Below, piece after piece: positions 9,338 through 62,130 of a DNA stretch of 64,000 bases (the stretch's first letter is position 1; every line of letters starts with the position of its first letter). The DNA lies in assembly GCA_008360975.2 (NCBI GenBank), contig CM039179.1:56892666-56956665 (forward strand). Direction: 5' to 3'. Origin of the DNA: Lichenostomus cassidix. Taxonomy: Eukaryota; Chordata; Aves; Passeriformes; Meliphagidae. A model generated the notes under the pieces. The model was not told the origin of the DNA, made no database searches, and worked only from the letters and a program-made list of their open reading frames with translations. The position numbers and the translations under genes are program-made.

Positions 9338-9342
9338 CTGTT
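9338..9342. repeat. target-site duplication, left copy
   Basis: The 5-mer CTGTT directly precedes the TG start of the left LTR. The same 5-mer follows the CA end of the right LTR at 15293-15297. It marks the host sequence duplicated by the integrase. Confidence 0.9.
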
Positions 9343-9853
9343 TGTGTTGGTTTGAAAACAAACTAGTAGGAGATCACAAGTCAAGATTGAAATTAAAAAT
9401 AAGTGAAATAATACAAGGAAAAGCACTGACAAAGTCAGATACAACCTAACACCCTGTTAGGGTGGTAGTAGCAGTTTAACTGAAGTAGTCCAGTTGAAGT
9501 GGTGATCTTGTGAAGGTCTAGTCTTTAGCTGAAGATCTAGTAGTAGCTCTGGTCCTCTGGGAACCCAGTAGACAGGGCTAGCTCAGGCAGTTCTAAGGCC
9601 AGGTTATATTCACGTGGGAACACCTGGCTTCTCCCTCCTGGGCAGAGCATCTCACAATGGGATGAGATAAGTTTATGAGTCACACGGTGGGTCCCTGATG
9701 GCCCATTGCCTGTCATGCGGGGTGGGTCATTAGCAAGTGATAATAGCTAACGGATGGCCCATTGCCTGTCATCCGGAGTGGGTGATAGCAGCTAATGGCC
9801 CACAGCTGGTGGTAATAGAATACTTAACTACATCAATATTGCAACCTAGGACA
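9343..9853 (-). repeat. 3' LTR of the ERV
   Basis: This 511-bp direct repeat matches 14782-15292 except at five positions: 9364, 9476, 9525, 9610 and 9630. At each, this copy has T and the other has C on the + strand. The LTR starts TGTGTTGG and ends AGGACA in + orientation, so it has canonical TG...CA ends. Because the element reads on the minus strand, this left copy is the 3' LTR. Confidence 0.95.
9697..9800 (-). repeat. imperfect direct repeat in U3 of the 3' LTR
   Basis: GATGGCCCATTGCCTGTCAT occurs at 9697 and again at 9753 with a 56-bp period. The sequence between the copies is also related (GGGT...ATAGC...CTAA). The other LTR has the same pair at 15136 and 15192. Duplicated blocks in U3 are often enhancer elements; that role is inferred. 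Confidence 0.8.
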
Positions 9854-9874
9854 TTATCCACTCTTTATTTTATT
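9854..9874 (-). other. probable polypurine tract region of the ERV
   Basis: Read on the minus strand, the bases directly before the 3' LTR are purine-rich (AATAAAATAAAGAGTGGATAA). This is where the plus-strand primer should lie. The run is broken by several T residues, so it is a poor match to a classical polypurine tract. The terminal TAA of the gag-pro-pol frame (9854-9856) also lies here. Confidence 0.4.
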
Positions 9875-9956
9875 ACCATTTACATAGTTTTCACTTAAGA
9901 TAAGGTCTCTTTGTGGTACACAACAGGTTTCTTCATCTGCCTTCATCACCTACTAA

Positions 9957-10800
9957 GTATAACTAGGTCTTTGGGCAAAAACTACTCTACGGATGGGTTT
10001 GCCTTTGCTTGAGGTGGGACTAATTTAAACAGTCTTTCTTAAGAAACTTCTTACGTGTATTACAGGGACTTTATTTTTATTTACTGTGTGCAAAGGTTCG
10101 GACTCGGCAGGACCGGTTTGATTGATAGAACTTCTTGTGTTAACCATTTAGGTGGCCTTTGCTAAGTTTAGTTTTCAATTTTTGAAGGTTTTTTCGCCAA
10201 GTGCTTTCAAAGTTGTTTTAAGTAGTTTGTTGCACTGTTCAACTTTCCCGGCAGCTGGTGCATGATAGGGGATGTGGTATATTCATTCAATTTCGTGTTC
10301 TCTAGCCCAGGTGCTTATGAGGCTATTTTTGAAATGGGTTTTATTGTTAGACTCGATTTTCTCAGGGGTATCATGTCTTTACAGGACTTGCTTTTCTAGA
10401 CTCAAGATGGTGTTTCGGGCAGTAGCATGAGGCACAGGGTAGGTTTTTAACTATCCCGTGGTTGCTTTTACTATGGTTAACACGTAGTGCTTTCTTTGGC
10501 GGGTTTGGGGAAGTGTGATGTAGTCAACTTGCCATACTTCCCCATACCTGTACTTTGATCATCGTTTATTATACTACAGAGGCTTTACTCGCTTGGTTTG
10601 TTTGATTGCAGCGCAAGTCTCACAGCTGTGGATGACCTGTGAGATGTTGTCTATGGTCAAGTCTACCCCTCGGTCACGAGCTCACTTGTATGTCGCATCT
10701 CTCTCTTGATGACCAGAGGCATCATGGGCCCAACGAGCTAGAAATAATTCTTTTTTGTGCTGCTAGTCTAGATCTACCTGTGACATTTTCACTTTGGCAG
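9957..10800 (-). pseudogene. integrase domain with mutated catalytic triad
   Basis: An HHCC zinc-binding region is visible (HDASGH around 10705-10720 and CETC around 10610-10625). The first catalytic Asp is intact in WQVDYITLPQ (Asp codon 10523-10525). The catalytic Glu is intact at 10238-10240 in AAGKVEQCN. The codon exactly 36 positions before that Glu, where the second Asp of a D,D(35)E integrase must sit, is AAC (Asn, 10346-10348) in ESNNKTHF, while the family norm is DNG-T-H-F. GAC to AAC is a G-to-A change. Stops lie at 10763, 10682, 10574, 10559, 10451, 10379, 10283, 10175, 10148 and 10025. Confidence 0.9.
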
Positions 10801-10829
10801 CTCGGTCTACTTGCTCGTTGTTATGATGC

Positions 10830-11600
10830 TCTTCATTAGCTCGACTTTTAGGTACATGTGCATTCACGTGTTGAACTTTTACGGTCAGCTTTTTTGCCCG
10901 GGCGGCGATGTCCTGCCAAATCTCAGCGGCCCAGATGGGTTTTCCTCTGCGCTGCCAGTTAGCTTTTCTCCAGCGATCTAACCATCCCCACAGTGCGTTG
11001 GTTACTATTTAGGAGTCGGTGTAGAGATAGAGCCTTGGCCATTTTTCTCGTTTAGCAATATCTAAAGCCAGCTGGATGGCTTTAAGCTTTGCAACTTGAT
11101 TCGATCCACCTTGTCCCTCGGTAGCCTGTACAGCTTGTCGTGTGGGGCTCTATACTGCAGCTTTCCATCTCCGATCTGCGCTTACAATTTGGCAGGACCC
11201 ATCGGTGAAGAGGGCATAGCGTCTTTCACTCTCCGGCAGCTCGTTATACGGGGGTGCTTCCTCGGCACGTGTTACTTGCTCTTCTGCTTTTTTTGAAGAT
11301 AATTTAAAAGTTTCACTTTTAGGCCAGTTTGTTATGATTTCTAGAATTTCAGGGCGATTTGGGTTTTTAATACGGGCGCGCTGTGTGATGAGGGCAATCT
11401 ATTTGCTCTACGTGGCATCAGTGGCATGGTGGGTAGAGGGAATTCTTCTCTTGAACATTTACCCTAGCACTGGCAGTCGGGGTGCAAGGAGAAGTTGTGT
11501 TTCTGTGCCGATCACCTCTGAGGCAGCTTGGACTCTTTTGTAAGCTGCTAAGATTTCTTTTTCGGTGGGAGTGTAGTTGACTTCAGACTCTCTGTAACTT
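10830..11600 (-). pseudogene. connection and RNase H domain
   Basis: The RNase H first-Asp motif FTDGS is read at 11195-11209, and a second Asp motif (YTDS) ends at 11012, directly before a TAA stop at 11009-11011. A His near HVNAHVPKSRA (around 10880-10850) fits the C-terminal active-site loop. Five stops lie upstream (11606, 11459, 11408, 11399, 11150). RNase H removes the RNA strand after first-strand synthesis. Confidence 0.85.
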
Positions 11601-11614
11601 CGATTTTAGAATTT

Positions 11615-12620
11615 CAGTGGTCGACCTCGGGTCTCACCAGGCACTTTCTGCCAAAGGCTCCAGGACAGACTATGGCTCTCGGCTGCAGAGTAAAGCACAT
11701 TCTTTACTTCTGGTCCTGTCCTGACTGGTCCCAGGGCTACCGCATGAGCGATCTCTTGTTTGATCTGGGTGAAGGCTTGCTGCTGTTCAGGGCCCCAGTG
11801 GAAATCGTTTTTTTTGCGGGTTATGAGGTAGAGAGGACTCACGATTTGGCTGTACTCAGGGATGTGCATTTTCTAAAAGCCTATGGCGCTTAGGAAAGCT
11901 TGCGTCTCTTTCTTGTTGGTTGGTGGAGACATCGCGATGATCTTATTGATGACCTCAGAAGGAATCTGACGCCGTCTGTCTTGCCACTTTACTCCCAGGA
12001 ACTGGATCTCTCGGGCAGGTCTCTTGACTTTGCTCTTTTTGATGGCAAAACCGGCTTCCAGGAGAATTCTGATGATTTTTTCTCTTTTCTCAAATATTTC
12101 TATTGCTGTGTCCCCCCACACAATGATGTCATCAATATACTGTAGATGTTTTGGAGCTTCACCCTTTTCCAGTGCAGCCTGGATCAGTCCATGGCAGATG
12201 GTGGGACTGTGCTTCCACCCCTGGGGCAGTCGGTTCTACGTGTACTGCACACCTCTCTAGGTGAAAGCAAATTGAGGCCTGCACTCTGCTGCCAGAGGAA
12301 TGGAGAAAAAGGCATTGGCAATATCAATGGTCGCATACCACTTTGCTGCCTTGGATTCTAGCTCATACTGAAGTTCCAACATGTCCGGTACAGCAGCACT
12401 CAGTGGTGGTGTGACTTCATTCAGGCCCCGGTAATCCATCGTCAGTCTCTATTCTTTACTGGACTTACGCACCGGCCATATAGGGTTGTTAAAGGGTGAG
12501 TGAGCCTTGCTGACCACTCCTTGGCTCTCCAGATCCCGAATCATCTTATGGATGGGGGCCACAGAGTCTCTGTTAGTGCGGTATTGCCGGTGATGCACTG
12601 TTGCTGTAGCAATTGGTACT
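11615..12620 (-). pseudogene. reverse transcriptase domain
   Basis: Conserved blocks appear in the right order in one frame: MDYRGLNEVTPP (around 12440-12405), YATIDIANAFFSIPL (around 12330-12285), LPQGWKHSPTICH (around 12235-12190), the catalytic YIDD (12128-12139) and FLGVKWQ (around 12010-11990). The polymerase Asp residues are intact. Stops at 12449, 12257, 12236 and 11873 sit at or next to positions that are usually Trp in related polymerases. YIDD is a common retroviral variant of the YXDD box. Confidence 0.93.
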
Positions 12621-12759
12621 TGCTGTTTTTCAATTCTCAGTAGTCTTACAGCAGACGGGTTATCTGAGAGACCGGGCAGGGTATTCAGTTGTCTTATGTC
12701 TTCTGTCTCTACGGCTGCTATCCCAAAAGCCTAGCGATGTTCCTTTGGGTCTTTGAAAT

Positions 12760-13072
12760 ATCCACTCCTGAGATAATCTATGCTGAGGATGCATGGGGCG
12801 TCTGGACCAGTCACAATGGGGTGTTTCTGCTACTCATTTCTAGTTAAACTCACTTCAGCTTCCAGTACAGTCAGCTGCTGGGATCCTCCTGTCACCCCAG
12901 AAATAGAAATGGGTTCGGTCCTTACATACCTGGATGGCATCAGGGTGCACTGAGCGCCGGTGTCAACTAAAGCCGTGTATCTTTGTGGGTCAGACGTGCT
13001 AGGCTATCGGATCTACACAGTTCAATAGATCCGATTATCCCTTTCCTCTACCTGGCTAGAGGCAGGGCTTTT
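12760..13072 (-). pseudogene. retroviral aspartic protease segment
   Basis: The active-site motif ALVDTGAQCTLMP is read around 12940-12970, and the Asp-Thr-Gly core is intact. Downstream the frame continues through a region compatible with the flap and C-terminal half of a retropepsin. Five stops lie just upstream or inside it (13022, 13013, 13004, 12830, 12731). Retropepsins cleave the Gag-Pol precursor during particle maturation. This copy cannot be made as a continuous protein. Confidence 0.85.
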
Positions 13073-13075
13073 CTA

Positions 13076-14725
13076 ATCTTGTTTTTGGTGTACGATGTTC
13101 TTTTCCTGTAAATGTGTTCTTGAGGTTCTTTCAAGAGGATCAGTCATATTATCACTTCCATTTTGTCGGGGGTTCTGTCTACAAGAGACTGGGGCAGTGT
13201 TGTACTTAGATGAGCCTCCTGAAGTGGATGTTTCTTTTTTCAATTCACGTACCCGGGCTGCTAAGGAGGAGGTGGGTTTCCTATCTCACTTTCTCATGTC
13301 TTTCTCATGCTCTTGAAGGAAAAACCAGAGGTCACGTCGTGGAGTTTGTTTTCTTTCTCTGACTGGAGTACGTCTGCTCCTGATGGCAGAGACTCGGGTT
13401 GGTTTTGGTGTGGCATGGAAAAATCTTTCTGTGAGCTCTTTCCTTAGTTTCTGATGGCTCTCTTCAATCAATTTCCGGACTTGCTCGGCTAGGTTTGTTT
13501 CTACCGATGAGACCTGGGTGCGTAGTGGGGCGGTGACAGTGTCTTCATAAATTCTCAGTTTGTTTGCTAACACGCCCACCTGGTCTTCACTTTCTCTTCA
13601 CTGCAGTGTTGCCAGGTAACGAGAGTATATCTCTGGTCCGAGCCGCGCAAATCTTAGCCACATTTGTGAAGTGCACCGGACATTATCTGGGCTCTTGGGG
13701 AATCTCTCGTTGTCTGAGAAAATGATCTCTAGCACAGCCAATTTCTTCAGGCATCGAATACCTTGTTTTATTGTGTTTTATTTTCTTTGGTGCATCTGGA
13801 GGTCTTCTTTGCACAGGTATCTGTCTTGTACACTCAGCAGCAATCGCCGCCAGAGGCTGAGAGTTTTCTGGGTTTTTTCAATCTCCTGGTCAATGACTAC
13901 ATCTTGAGACAGGGATCTCAGTTGTCTGGCCTCACTTCTGTTTAGAATAGTGTCATTAGCTGCGGCGTCCCAGATACGGAGCAGCTAGGTTAAGATGGAC
14001 TCATTTGCCTGCCGGGTGAATTTTTTCTGTAGGTCACGCAGCTCCCCCAGGGATAGAGAGCGAGTGATGATCTCTGGCTCTGTCTCTTCTGCTGGGTGAG
14101 ATGGTTCTGCCGCATCTTCATCAGTCGCTGTGCGGACTGACTTGCTCTTGGATTTCTTTTTCTGGACGGGGGCAACTGCTACTGGCTTTGGCTGTTCTGA
14201 TTCGGCAATGGTCTGTGTTGAGATGTCGACTGTTCTTTTGGTTCTTTTTTTTTTGCCTGCTGATTTGCTTCGTTTCTTTTCTTCAAGAAGACAAAGTATT
14301 TTTTTGTTTTTCAGCATGAGGTACACTGTGCTGGTCGCAGAGAAGAAAGAAAACAGAACTAACAGGAAGATTATGCTATCCTTAGCATCCAGAAAGAACT
14401 CAATGTTGTCAAAGATGGCTGTGCCTGGCCTGAAATGCTGGAAGAAACCACTCTCTCCTCCTAGCCCCAGAGGGTGGGTGCGATTGCTGAGGAGGTCTCA
14501 GACGAAGCAGCTCAGGTTAGGCCAGGCAGACAAAGTCGAGTATATATTCTGAATGGTATTCATCGCCTCACAGGTTACTATGCAATAGGCATAATAAAGC
14601 AATACAGCAATTCTCATGCCATTCCCTGGTCGCAACAGGAGCAATGCAACGGGTAGATAGTTTCTCATTTGAGGGAAAATATAAAGGGTAAGATACATTA
14701 CCCACATAGACAGGCTGAGCATCAT
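13076..14725 (-). pseudogene. Gag-like region with hydrophobic N-terminus
   Basis: If translation starts at 14725, the first about 140 codons hold several hydrophobic stretches: roughly 14725-14675, 14655-14630, 14620-14570 and 14395-14310. A very basic KKRSKSAGKKKRTKR-like segment (about 14295-14235) and a charged, coiled-coil-prone region (about 13580-13290) follow. I see no Cys-His zinc knuckle. No standard Gag domain is recognisable, so 'Gag' rests on position upstream of protease. Stops interrupt it at 14498, 13985, 13778, 13598 and 13286. A start further in, such as the ATG near 14315, would exclude the hydrophobic part, but the frame is open almost back to the primer site. Confidence 0.6.
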
Positions 14726-14758: not shown

Positions 14759-14776
14759 GCCCCACGTTGGGCGCCA
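14759..14776 (-). other. primer-binding site, tRNA-Lys(1,2) type
   Basis: The minus strand reads TGGCGCCCAACGTGGGGC, five bases after the end of the 5' LTR. I recognise this as the complement of the 3' end of tRNA-Lys(1,2), the primer class used by foamy viruses, visna and Mason-Pfizer virus. All 18 bases match. Only about 33 bases separate it from the first in-frame ATG, which is very short for a retroviral leader. Confidence 0.92.
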
Positions 14777-14781
14777 AAATA

Positions 14782-15292
14782 TGTGTTGGTTTGAAAACAA
14801 ACCAGTAGGAGATCACAAGTCAAGATTGAAATTAAAAATAAGTGAAATAATACAAGGAAAAGCACTGACAAAGTCAGATACAACCTAACACCCTGTTAGG
14901 GTGGTAGTAGCAGTCTAACTGAAGTAGTCCAGTTGAAGTGGTGATCTTGTGAAGGTCTAGTCTCTAGCTGAAGATCTAGTAGTAGCTCTGGTCCTCTGGG
15001 AACCCAGTAGACAGGGCTAGCTCAGGCAGTTCTAAGGCCAGGTTATATCCACGTGGGAACACCTGGCTCCTCCCTCCTGGGCAGAGCATCTCACAATGGG
15101 ATGAGATAAGTTTATGAGTCACACGGTGGGTCCCTGATGGCCCATTGCCTGTCATGCGGGGTGGGTCATTAGCAAGTGATAATAGCTAACGGATGGCCCA
15201 TTGCCTGTCATCCGGAGTGGGTGATAGCAGCTAATGGCCCACAGCTGGTGGTAATAGAATACTTAACTACATCAATATTGCAACCTAGGACA
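14782..15292 (-). repeat. 5' LTR of the ERV
   Basis: This is the 511-bp partner of 9343-9853, in the promoter position for the minus-strand provirus. It has C at all five positions where the two LTRs differ (14803, 14915, 14964, 15049, 15069). It carries the same U3 direct repeat, at 15136 and 15192. I see no clear AATAAA in viral sense. Confidence 0.95.
15041..15050 (-). promoter_or_regulatory. TATA-like element in the 5' LTR
   Basis: The minus strand reads GGATATAACC, about 90 bases downstream in viral sense of the duplicated U3 block. It is the best TATA-like candidate in the LTR. In the 3' LTR the equivalent GGATATA is GAATATA, one of the five G-to-A differences. Confidence 0.35.
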
Positions 15293-15297
15293 CTGTT
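15293..15297. repeat. target-site duplication, right copy
   Basis: CTGTT follows the CA end of the right LTR and matches 9338-9342. A sixth T is shared by chance on this side only if the LTR is taken to start one base later, so 5 bp is the preferred length. Confidence 0.9.
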
Positions 15298-57519: not shown

Positions 57520-57915
57520 ATGCTGCACCACTGATCAGGGGATCCATGGATATTGAGTGCTTGCGAACCTGGGCAGTGTGGGGTGTGTGCTGCACTTGTG
57601 ACCTTCTGCCTCTGCCTGCCCAAGAGGAGGAGGGGATATGTCCCTGTGTGCTTGTGTCTGAGTCTGAATGTGGGGGATACTGGTGGGAGAGCCTTGTCTG
57701 TGGCTCTCTTGTGGCCTTGTCTGTGGCACTTTGTGTCTGTGTCCTCTGTGTGTGTGTGTGATATACGTTCAGCCTCATTGCTGGTGAACTTACAAGCAGG
57801 AAAGTATCAGCTACATCCACTGGCCCTGGACGGAGACCTCAAGGTCTCAGGGCTGGACACAGTGGCAGGAGAAATCCCGAGAACCAGAGCTGCTGAAGGC
57901 AGCAGATGCTTCATC
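57520..57915 (+). repeat. GC-rich unclassified repeat, shorter inverted copy
   Basis: This segment is the reverse complement of part of 61190-61560. For example 57557-57593 and 61496-61532 agree at 35 of 37 positions when one is reversed. The shared order of a GT/TCTG-rich block and a CTCAGG/GGACC-type block continues over about 370 bases. A GT run lies at about 57746-57760. Overlapping open frames in several frames and on both strands come from its composition and are not genes. Confidence 0.7.
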
Positions 57916-58174
57916 TAGCATCCATTAACACATACAACTTGAAAATACAACATTTATATGTATTATTACCTTATACTGGATTGATACATATTGTGTGTTA
58001 ATGTAATTTTTTGTTACATTTGTTATGTTTTCTGATTGCACTCCGAAGTTGCAGGATATGAATGCCATGTATTGAAAAGTTCAGAAAGCATTGTACCTAT
58101 GCAAAACTGTGGCTAGCACAGGTTTTTCCCATGAGAAATTTTCTTGTGTTTTATAAATAAAGATAAAGTTTGGA

Positions 58175-58372: not shown

Positions 58373-61189
58373 AAACTAGATTACAAATTTAATAAAAATT
58401 ATATGCAATCAGATTGCAAAGCAGAAGATCTTTTTTTAGATTGTACTTAATAGAAAATTCCATTTGAACTGATCAGAAGATTTTTATTACACAACAATTT
58501 GATGAGGAAATTCAATGTTATTTGTCTTGTAGAGACTTAAAAGAGAGATCATATATCATGACTTTTATCTCCTTTCTAAGCTATTGCTAAGAATTTAAAT
58601 GTTAATATTCCTTTTCTCTTATTTTATGTAAATATGAAATATACTCTCATCGTTCCATAGTCTATAACAGATAGAAAGCTTTTTCGTCTGTTTGGTTAAC
58701 TGGAATCAAATATTTTTTTTAAAGCAAATCTGTAGTAATGATATTCATCTCCAAAAGCCTTTTATTTCTCTGTGAGACTTTACTAAGTACTAATCACCTT
58801 CTCTACCAGTCAACTATTTATTGCTAAAACTCTAAAAATTTAGAAAATAGATTTGACTACTTTAATAAAGTAGGCTAATTGAGTTATATTAGGTTCAATC
58901 TAAGGAGAGTGAAATAATTTAGCTCTTTCTCTTCTGTCTGTGTAAGGCACTGATACAGACACTTTTATATTGATAAAATTGATACATTGCTCTTTCAAAA
59001 CCCAAATGATTCTACACATGATAAGCAGTGCTCATTATCTGAAAATGCTATCTCTAAATTTTATCTAAATAAACTTGAAAATTAAATTCTAATAATGTAC
59101 CCACCCTGAAATTACCTTAGCTAGTTTCAGAAGTAAATCACATATGTCACTTGTGAAGAAAAGGACATTTTACCTTCTGAGATGACAAACATTTGCCAAA
59201 CATTGGTGTTGAATTCACACCATCATGGGAAGCAGAATTGAGGACCATTCCTGGTTTGTACATGAAGGACAGTGTCCTGCTGCACCTGCACTTGTTTTCA
59301 CGAATTGTATCCTTCCCAAGAGGAACACTCTTGATACATACTCATGCTGTTAAAATGATATTTGCAAAGGGCATATTTCTCTGCCAACACAGCACTTGCA
59401 TCCTTCACGTTCCTAAATTCCTACCCAGTTCCTTACATGAGTCCAGATAAACTTCATCTAATGTAATTGATTTTATGCTACTAGCACATCCACGAATGGA
59501 CTTATATAAATAACCTGAAGATAAATATAATAATGAGTGAATTAATTTTTCAGTTTTGATTTGTAACTTGAAAAGCTGTCTATACGTACTCTGAAAGATG
59601 CAGAGTTGTTTTGTGGCGCCTGTACGATTGATTTTACCTGGATCTAAAATGTTCTTTTTTTCTCTTTATTGGGTAAAATTTGTTTCACCTTTTAAGGAAG
59701 ATTTAAGCAATGAATCTTAGTGAAGCATTTTAATTCCCTGTATCATCAGTGGAGCACCCATCTGGGTGCATCATCTGGCACCCAGAAAGGGCAATTAATC
59801 ATACTAAGATATATATTTTTCCTTGAGAAATTATCCACTTGGACTTATATCATATTTATTACGTTGCAATCACTTGTACAGAGGTTCTGATCTGGCACTG
59901 GTGTTTACCTCATTGCAAATGTGGCATGGTAAAAAGTATAGGGCTGTTTAGCTGTCAGAGAAAGAGAAACTGGTTACCTCAAATTGCCCTGCCACGTATA
60001 CTGTAGCCCTGTTGGCAGTGCCAAATCCTTTACAACATACCAGAATTATCCTTTTCTTATACCAAATCCTTTACAACATATCAGAATTACCCATTGTTCT
60101 CATGTAGTTTGTTAGGCACAGAACTGTAAAAAAAACCCCAGAAGATTCAACCCTGGAAAGCTGTGAAAAACTGAGCAAAATAAAGAAAATGAGGCTTTTG
60201 TTTAGAATATTTTTCTCTTTTGTACCAACTCTGAAAATGAATAGAGTCATATTACAATTCTTTTGCATGTGGGTAAATGTAATAACTGTGGTGAGTGGTG
60301 ACTGCTCATTTGGTGTTCAAACCAGTATCTGCCTGAAAATATTTCAATGTATTGTAAATCATTTTCTCAAGCAGTGTGGATCACTAATTTCCTTTGGAAG
60401 AGAATCAGCCAACATGTTATTCAGGACACACCTGGAGGGCAATTTGCTTGTTTCGAGTTTTGTGAAACGGAAATGACACAATGTTAATTTGCTTTTAAAC
60501 TCCTTGCCATGTCTATGAATTAAATAAGCAATTGGATGAGACCAAACTGAATGCATTGAGATATCAGCCATGCAGTCCGCTTACTTTGCCTGATTGTGAT
60601 GGAAAAGTCTTTTATATCAGCAGTTAACATGTTCACATTTTCCACACTAGGCCTTTTCAGAAAACCCAGTGACAAATTCTTTGTAGATTTATATTCCACT
60701 TACATTTGAAAAAAATATGTCCCCAGAGTTAACTTTAAAGGTCTCTCTTTTTTTTTTTGTCTCTGTATTTTAACTGTTTTTATTACTTTACATCATGACT
60801 TTGGTATTGGGGGAAATATGCAGTTCTGTAGAGAGGTATATTCACAAATAAATGCTAGAAGAACACTCAAGCTCAGGATCTGATTAATTTATGTGTTTAC
60901 AAACATTTATATTCTAATATTAATATGCAATTTATGCTATTAATTTATTAATTGATCAATACTTTGCAGCTATTTGCATAAATAGCATCTCAGTCTCTAT
61001 CATCAGTAATGTTAGCAACAGCTGTAATCATAATATTTAATTTACCTTTTGATTCATCTTACCTCAATTGATTTGGGTGTTTGGAACAGCCTCTGGAATC
61101 CCGTCTTTTATCACAGGAGATTTCATTGCAAAAGTTAGTAGTTAAATTTTATTAGGATGCTCCCATACCAGGTTGTCTTTCACAAGCCA
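58373..61189. other. AT-rich DNA, no gene recognised
   Basis: No supported gene. A 31-base unit is directly repeated at 60021-60051 and 60062-60092. The open frames at 59193-59450 and 60189-60476 have no recognisable domain. Confidence 0.55.
60021..60092. repeat. direct duplication, 41-base period
   Basis: CCAAATCCTTTACAACATA(C/T)CAGAATTA(T/C)CC occurs at 60021 and again at 60062. Two mismatches within 31 bases suggest a local duplication of moderate age. Confidence 0.85.
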
Positions 61190-62130
61190 CTGTTTTAATG
61201 CCACGGGACGGTGGCTACCACCACCAGCAAATCCAGGCGAAGAACTCCTCCCATACATCCTGGAGCCTGGAGACCTGCAGGCTCTGGTCAGACTGGGGGA
61301 TGTGGCTGCTGTTATCACTTCAGCCAGCGGTGAGTTTCACTCAGACACACAGAGGACACAGACACACCCGGTCACACAGAGAGCCACGGACGAGGCACAG
61401 CCTCCAGCAGCTCCCAGATTCAGGACTTACAGCAGACACAAGCACACAAAGACACATTCCCTCTTCCTCCTGGGCAGGCAGAGGCAGCAGGCAGTGCAGC
61501 ACACACCCCACAGTGCCCAGGTTCACAAGCACACACACATTGGCAGAGCCCCTGAGCACCAGCATGGCCCCGCTGCCCACCCTGCACCCCTGCTGAGATC
61601 CTGGCCCTCCTTACTCACCCCGTGGGTCCCTGACTCACAGGCCGGTCCCCCTGGGTACTCATTGCACACACAAAGAACTCACACTCTTGTCCCACAGGCA
61701 CGCCATCTGCGGGTTCTCCTGAATGCCTGCACAGACCCAAGGCCCCCCTACTCCCCACCTGGTCTCAGCTTGGAGTTTGCCAGCAGCTCCACACTTACAC
61801 GGCACACAGAGCCAGTCTGGGGGCAGGAACAGACCCTGCCCCAGCAGCTGGCACCTGGCACACATGCTGGGACACACAGTCCCAATCCAGCTGTCACCGC
61901 TAAGCCCCTCACTCTCCTCATTCATACCCACCTCAGTAGCTGGATTTGGGACGCACACCACAACCACCTCGTTACGTGGAGGTTAATGACCCCACTGACT
62001 GCAGCAGCTGTCACCGCAGGCAGGGGTACCCACTGGCAGACCGGGTATCTGTCTGCAGAACTGTGCACCCAGTTGCCTCTCACCAATTCCCCCAGCACCT
62101 GGCTTTGAGACTTTATTACACTGACCCACA
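61190..62130 (-). repeat. GC-rich unclassified repeat, longer copy
   Basis: About 940 bp of markedly GC-rich, CACA/CTG-rich sequence in AT-rich surroundings, inverted relative to 57520-57915. It contains a 311-codon + strand open frame (61173-62108), but frames on the minus strand are open over the same stretch and the translation is Thr/Pro/His-rich without domains. I read it as composition, not a gene. An ERV LTR or non-autonomous element is likely. The strand given only marks the opposite orientation to the 57.5-kb copy. Confidence 0.6.

What the first reader, a model, noticed from the sequence alone, without database searches (positions are those of the whole stretch)
9854..14725. ERV with 33 stop codons but no frameshift: signature of G-to-A hypermutation
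Directly seen: one minus-strand frame of about 1,624 codons stays in register from the primer site to the 3' LTR, yet holds 18 TAG, 8 TGA and 7 TAA stops. Slow neutral decay would also leave indels, and none shift the frame. Established: Trp (TGG) becomes any of the three stops by G-to-A alone, and many of these stops sit where related polymerases have conserved Trp, for example before RLTMDYRGLN and just before NRLPQGWKHSP. Inference: the viral cDNA was edited by a cytidine deaminase (APOBEC- or AID-like) in the replication cycle that made this insertion. G-to-A editing of LTR elements has been reported in bird genomes, although birds lack APOBEC3.
Basis: partly seen in the sequence, partly recalled or inferred. 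Interest (0 to 1): 0.85.

Follow-up and report, generated by a model that had tools for sequence, protein, structure and literature searches.

The report
Bird retrovirus killed by DNA editing
A young endogenous retrovirus, most likely in a songbird genome, carries dozens of stop codons that look like the work of a host enzyme that damaged the virus's DNA while it was being copied; birds lack the enzyme family known for this in mammals.

Summary
Observation confirmed: a complete provirus without room for env (LTRs 9343-9853 and 14782-15292, minus strand) holds one 1,624-codon frame with 33 internal stops and no frameshift. G-to-A editing is supported. (1) The LTRs match at 506/511 sites; all 5 mismatches are G in the 5' LTR and A in the 3' LTR on the viral strand, none at CpG. 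(2) Neutral decay at that divergence gives about 0.9 stops. (3) Against proteins of relatives (bird, where named, bar two likely contaminants), 470 scored codons give 30 inferred G>A and 2 C>T; all 9 testable stops (of 33) face Trp. (4) Edited Gs mostly precede A or G and AID hotspots are under-used. G>A confined to the 3' LTR was described in 2025 for mouse proviruses and attributed to late displacement of that minus strand, so editing took place in the cycle that made this copy. Against: no 5'-3' gradient. Editing of bird LTR elements is known; I saw no bird case of the 3'-LTR mark in my searches. The own-genome test did not complete (12 calls).

The parts
14782..15292 (-). 5' LTR (511 bp), TG...CA ends
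   Evidence: 506/511 identical to the other LTR, no gaps
9343..9853 (-). 3' LTR (511 bp); carries all 5 LTR mismatches as A where the 5' LTR has G (viral strand), 4 in GA and 1 in GG context
15293..15297 (.). target-site duplication, 5 bp
   Evidence: same 5 bases on both sides
9338..9342 (.). target-site duplication, 5 bp
   Evidence: same 5 bases on both sides
14759..14776 (-). primer-binding site, Lys-type (tRNA assignment recalled)
   Evidence: 18 nt, starting after five bases inside the 5' LTR
9854..14725 (-). single gag-pro-pol frame, 33 internal stops, no frameshift, no room for env
13781..14497 (-). gag-like part (pieces 13988-14497 and 13781-13984)
   Evidence: 74 relatives of piece 13988-14497, named ones from birds; 42 relatives align to piece 13781-13984; no Pfam match above gathering score
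12833..13003 (-). protease-like piece
   Evidence: PF13975 and PF00077 at E about 0.002, below gathering score
11876..12448 (-). reverse transcriptase (pieces 12260-12448 and 11876-12235)
   Evidence: RVT_1 E 1.7e-6 (just below gathering score) and 1e-11; 391 relatives of the second piece, best 120 listed
10766..11149 (-). RNase H (pieces 11012-11149 and 10766-11008)
   Evidence: RNase_H E 0.014 (weak) and 1e-7; 64 relatives of the second piece
10454..10558 (-). integrase-core-like piece
   Evidence: rve E 0.0082, below gathering score

Best explanation
This is a young provirus without env whose minus-strand cDNA was deaminated (C to U, read as G>A on the viral strand) by a host cytidine deaminase during the reverse-transcription cycle that made this insertion. 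Shown here: the G>A excess, its strand, its 3' purine bias, Trp in relatives at the testable stops, low divergence otherwise, and G>A marks confined to the 3' LTR. Inferred: the order of events. Early edits of the whole minus strand gave the stops and missense changes; after second-strand transfer the minus strand of the 3' LTR is displaced and single-stranded a second time, so late edits show only there. Also inferred: the enzyme prefers a pyrimidine before the target C (APOBEC3/APOBEC1-like, not AID); in a bird the leading candidate is APOBEC1.
For: LTRs differ at 5 of 511 sites, all G(5')/A(3') on the viral strand, none at CpG, all followed by A or G; under strand and LTR symmetry of transitions (1/4)^5, about 0.001, for this class, 0.004 for any one class (own arithmetic). 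Relatives: 34 differing codons among 470 scored give G>A 30, C>T 2, A>G 1, T>C 0, transversions 6; G>A share under random substitution would be 15%, 30 of 39 observed, p about 7e-18; against C>T alone p about 2e-6. G>A v C>T under 4 other filter settings: 37.5 v 2, 23 v 2, 19 v 1, 52.5 v 4. All 9 stops with at least 3 relatives face Trp by majority (436 of 466 residues). Second G of Trp-type codons lost in 14 of 37 before a purine, 1 of 22 before a pyrimidine, p 0.005; inferred G>A 23/154 before a purine v 7/123 before a pyrimidine, p 0.018. LTR and coding rates at GA/GG sites do not differ significantly (5/55 v 23/154, p 0.36). No relative shares more than 2 of the 28 purely G>A codons. Same 3'-LTR mark in mouse proviruses.
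Against: No significant rise of stops toward the 3' end (4/9, 8/11, 8/16, 13/23 by quarter; p 0.22), although such a gradient is reported for a group of mouse proviruses. 24 of 33 stops could not be tested against relatives. Loss of the first G in Trp-type codons (25/59) exceeds the inferred rate at other GG sites (11/60, p 0.005; the second rate comes from a stricter, missense-only inference): TGG may be a hot motif (as for APOBEC3G), or some edits are older than this cycle. Of the five control frames for the context test one shows a weaker trend the same way (23/47 v 12/43, p 0.052). The laxer filter settings also raise A>G (6.5 and 11.5). p values are uncorrected for several tests. Substitutions are inferred from proteins, not from DNA of the same family in the same genome.
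Confidence: 0.86

Rival explanations
1. Inherited damage: the stops were made in an earlier cycle and this copy is a trans-mobilised descendant of an already edited provirus, with only the 3'-LTR marks being new.
For: A case is described in mice: Mtv23 is inferred to be a copy of the edited Mtv17. TGG loss is higher than the inferred rate at other GG sites. 17 of the 115 relatives (of 258) whose last residue aligns to a piece end exactly where this copy has a stop.
Against: The testable stops (9 of 33) face Trp in most relatives. No relative shares more than 2 derived residues; 37 of 1,066 cells are shared, scattered over 12 of 28 codons. LTR and coding-frame rates are compatible with one event. 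The LTR differences need editing in the last cycle in any case. Copies in the same genome were not seen.
Confidence: 0.1
2. Neutral decay after integration (ordinary mutation, methyl-CpG deamination).
For: A silenced provirus is expected to decay; the LTRs do differ at 5 sites.
Against: 0.9 expected stops against 33; G>A 30 v C>T 2; none of the 5 LTR changes at CpG and all in one LTR; no frameshift.
Confidence: 0.01
3. Editing by AID rather than an APOBEC1/APOBEC3-like enzyme.
For: AID is present in birds (recalled); its involvement in mutation of a mouse retrovirus has been reported (passages).
Against: AID prefers WRC, i.e. GYW on the viral strand: 2 of 61 such G sites changed against 28 of 216 other G sites, p 0.034. 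None of the 5 LTR changes is in GYW.
Confidence: 0.05
4. The frame is not decayed but uses suppression or recoding of its stops.
For: The frame is otherwise in register.
Against: Three different stops, 33 of them, with many extra G>A missense changes; 26 TGG remain.
Confidence: 0.005

Closest known systems
DNA-edited LTR retrotransposons of birds (Knisbacher and Levanon 2016, as cited in PMC6523648 and PMC6497032)
   Same: G>A editing of bird LTR elements, with especially strong signals in zebra finch (passages of the two citing papers).
   Different: That work covered many genomes and I could not read it. The two citing papers differ on medium ground finch: one names it among strong signals, the other says the effect there was much more limited. 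Here one copy is diagnosed on its own, by LTR asymmetry and Trp stops.
Hypermutated endogenous MMTVs with G>A unique to the 3' LTR (PMC12548423, 2025)
   Same: Genome-wide G>A plus LTR mismatches confined to the 3' LTR (all but one there, 5 of 5 here), explained there by displacement of the 3' LTR minus strand late in reverse transcription (section 7 read; discussion passage).
   Different: Mouse, APOBEC3, betaretrovirus. The authors state it had not been reported for other retroviruses and found it also in MLV. Here a provirus without env in a presumed bird, a class described as lacking APOBEC3.
Class III (ERVL/spuma-like) elements
   Same: The best five of 8 solved-structure hits of the RT piece (8e-10 to 4.3e-9) are chains that I recall as foamy virus protease-RT-RNase H; no room for env; 5-bp duplication.
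   Different: Lys-type primer site rather than the Leu type that names ERVL (recalled); no tree was built.

Membership tests
Cytidine-deaminase-hypermutated provirus | Excess of G>A over C>T on the viral strand | tested here: met
   30 v 2 in 470 scored codons; 5 of 5 LTR mismatches
Cytidine-deaminase-hypermutated provirus | Biased base 3' of the edited G | tested here: met
   14/37 v 1/22, p 0.005; 23/154 v 7/123, p 0.018; one of five control frames shows a weaker trend, p 0.052
Cytidine-deaminase-hypermutated provirus | Changes private to the copy, few other changes | tested here: met
   9 non-G>A against 30 G>A; at most 2 derived residues shared with any sampled relative
Cytidine-deaminase-hypermutated provirus | 5'-to-3' gradient of edits | tested here: inconclusive
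   p 0.22
Cytidine-deaminase-hypermutated provirus | Unedited copies of the same family in the same genome | not tested
   The genome search unanswered (12 calls)
MMTV-type late editing (G>A unique to the 3' LTR) | LTR mismatches G>A and in the 3' LTR | tested here: met
   5 of 5
AID-type editing | WRC hotspot use (GYW on the viral strand) | tested here: not met
   2/61 v 28/216, depleted, p 0.034
APOBEC3 editing | Host encodes APOBEC3 | not testable with these tools
APOBEC1 editing | Host APOBEC1 present and expressed in the germ line | not testable with these tools
   A1 homologs are reported in zebra finch and anole (passages of PMC3880073)
Class III (ERVL/spuma-like) | RT closest to spuma-like RT | tested here: inconclusive
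   sequence hits only; no tree built
Class III (ERVL/spuma-like) | tRNA-Leu primer site | tested here: not met
   site reads as Lys type (assignment recalled)

The most novel reading that the evidence does not exclude
A bird deaminase, not APOBEC3 and not AID, acts on retroviral minus-strand DNA with an APOBEC3-like preference (purine 3' of the edited G) and stays active until the last step of reverse transcription, leaving marks only in the 3' LTR. The 3'-LTR mark would then be a general single-copy signature of deaminase editing across vertebrates, usable without any reference copy, and it would correct LTR-based ages, which for this copy would rest on edits alone (no other LTR difference in 511 bp).
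Probability: 0.55. Interest if true: 0.65.

Novelty: new member of a known kind. Interest (0 to 1): 0.5.

Why it matters
Birds are described as lacking APOBEC3, yet their LTR elements are reported to be strongly edited; which enzyme does it is open as far as I know. One copy here helps to separate the candidates by context (against AID) and shows editing in the last cycle. G>A confined to the 3' LTR, described in 2025 for mouse MMTV and MLV, appears here in a presumably avian element that would need a different deaminase; in nine searches of the held papers (listings, abstracts and some passages seen) I saw no bird case. LTR dating of such copies measures editing, not age.

Tried and rejected
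Neutral decay, AID editing and stop recoding were considered and rejected (see rivals). DNA relatives were sought and not found: viral contigs with the RT piece and with an alignment, genome contigs, phages. Knisbacher and Levanon 2016 is not held. Rfam (gathering scores) and tRNA scans of the window were empty. Self-comparison of the window (E up to 1e-8, over 60 bp) shows the LTR pair but no other copy of the element. A 5'-to-3' gradient was sought and not found. A conserved hydrophobic Gag segment was sought and not supported (5 of 74 relatives). Two paper look-ups failed on their search terms and were repeated with plain terms.
Full report
What is there. On the minus strand lies a complete provirus: 5' LTR 14782-15292, 3' LTR 9343-9853, both 511 bp with TG...CA ends, flanked by the same 5 bases (9338-9342 and 15293-15297), with a Lys-type primer site at 14759-14776 (tRNA assignment recalled). 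Between them one frame, 9854-14725, runs from 56 nt after the 5' LTR to the 3' LTR. The frame is the least interrupted in each of the eight full 600-nt blocks. Pieces match protease (weak), reverse transcriptase, RNase H and integrase (weak) families. There is no room for env.

Host. The window's species is not given. The RT piece has 391 relatives, of which the best 120 are listed; the named ones are from birds, many passerine, apart from one record labelled Klebsiella, presumably contamination. The gag-like piece has 74 and an RNase H piece 64 relatives, again from birds where named, with one record labelled Salmonella. A songbird host is therefore inferred, not shown.

LTR test. The two LTRs differ at 5 of 511 positions. 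At all five the 5' LTR has G and the 3' LTR has A on the viral strand; four are followed by A, one by G; none follows C. Under symmetry of strand and LTR the chance that five transitions all fall in this one class is (1/4)^5, about 0.001, or 0.004 for any one of the four classes (own arithmetic; the choice of LTR was not fixed in advance). Apart from these five the LTRs are identical, so the insertion is young.

Decay test. At the LTR divergence, simulated random substitution gives 0.9 new stops on average (maximum 5 in 500 runs); 20% divergence gives about 28. Neutral sources of new stops would be G>A in 18.5% and C>T in 37.8% of cases.

Relatives test. The 258 listed relatives (120 of 391, 74 and 64) were aligned to the stop-free pieces of 12 or more residues. 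Alignments of at least 68% identity over at least 60% of a piece were used for columns; positions were scored if at least 5 relatives covered them (470 codons), and a change was called where at least 60% of the relatives agreed on another residue and at most 10% had the window's. 34 codons differ, with inferred changes G>A 30, C>T 2, A>G 1, T>C 0, transversions 6. Random substitution put through the same codon inference gives a G>A share of 15%. Four other filter settings give G>A v C>T of 37.5 v 2, 23 v 2, 19 v 1 and 52.5 v 4; A>G rises to 6.5 and 11.5 in the two laxer ones. A first run on 120 relatives and three pieces gave 9 v 1 in 253 codons. At the 9 of 33 stops where at least 3 relatives reach the site, the majority residue is Trp every time (436 of 466 residues); the other 24 stops are untested.

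Context. Among the 59 in-frame TGG/TAG/TGA/TAA codons the second G is lost in 11 of 24 before A, 3 of 13 before G, 1 of 7 before T and 0 of 15 before C (purine v pyrimidine 14/37 v 1/22, p 0.005). Of the five other frames four show no such difference (p 0.38 to 1.0) and one shows a weaker one (23/47 v 12/43, p 0.052). Inferred G>A: 23 of 154 sites before a purine, 7 of 123 before a pyrimidine, p 0.018. AID hotspots (WRC, i.e. GYW here; motif) were hit in 2 of 61 against 28 of 216 elsewhere, p 0.034. These p values are not corrected for several tests. The preference resembles APOBEC3 enzymes (CC or TC targets) more than AID.

Which cycle. Edits made before the plus-strand strong-stop is copied appear in both LTRs; edits made after the second strand transfer, when the 3' LTR minus strand is displaced, appear in the 3' LTR alone. 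That mechanism is given in PMC12548423, which reports 3'-LTR-specific G>A in four endogenous MMTVs (one mismatch excepted) and in MLV and says that it had not been reported for other retroviruses (section 7 read in full; discussion passage). The present element shows the same pattern, 5 of 5. The rate at GA/GG sites in the 3' LTR (5/55) and in scored codons (23/154) does not differ significantly (p 0.36), so one event suffices. Against it: loss of the first G in Trp-type codons (25/59) is higher than the inferred rate at other GG sites (11/60, p 0.005), though the second figure comes from a stricter, missense-only inference. A hot TGG motif would explain this and is reported for human APOBEC3G (abstract of PMC3909203), but older edits are not excluded. 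No 5'-to-3' gradient was seen (p 0.22), although one is reported for a group of mouse proviruses (passage of PMC2041998).

Not inherited from the sampled relatives. 28 codons can be explained by G>A alone; 12 of them are shared with at least one relative, no relative shares more than 2, and 37 of 1,066 cells are shared in all. Relatives in other birds seem to be edited too: of 120 RT relatives 17 show at least four private G>A-type residue changes and at least three times as many as C>T-type, against 0 in the mirror-image control; pooled private changes are G>A 245, A>G 168, C>T 104, T>C 95, with 15, 15, 11 and 11 residue pairs open to each class. Of the 115 relatives (of 258) whose last residue aligns to a piece, 17 end exactly at a site where this copy has a stop, 5 at a site where it has TGG and 93 elsewhere. 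This fits repeated hits on the same Trp codons, though it could partly reflect shared ancestry.

Enzyme. Passages in two papers say that bird LTR elements, zebra finch above all, carry strong editing signals, citing Knisbacher and Levanon 2016, which I could not read; the two differ on medium ground finch. APOBEC3 is described as specific to eutherian mammals (abstract of PMC5399452); APOBEC1 homologs are reported in zebra finch and anole, and anole APOBEC1 mutates DNA (passages of PMC3880073). APOBEC1 is my leading candidate (about 0.5); its target context in birds is not known to me.

What was not done. Viral and prokaryote contig collections gave no DNA relative. The verdict therefore rests on the LTR pair, on codon context within the copy and on proteins of relatives.

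Noticed in passing
window 13988-14497 (-): The gag-like piece holds a strongly hydrophobic 19-residue stretch (mean hydropathy 2.13), perhaps a membrane anchor in a provirus without env; only 5 of 74 relatives of the piece have one of at least 1.6.
   Followed up: partly
relatives P0011, P0032, P0006, P0079 and others: 17 of 120 RT relatives show an excess of private G>A-type residue changes, 0 the mirror excess: editing of this family looks widespread in birds.
   Followed up: partly
window 57557-57742 and 61339-61532: Inverted repeat of about 190 bp at 80% identity, overlapping listed ORFs 57553-57918 and 61173-62108, which have no Pfam match up to E 0.05.
   Followed up: no
relatives P0039 and P0250: Bird-type retroviral proteins filed under Klebsiella pneumoniae and Salmonella on contigs of a few hundred bases, presumably host DNA contamination.
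   Followed up: no
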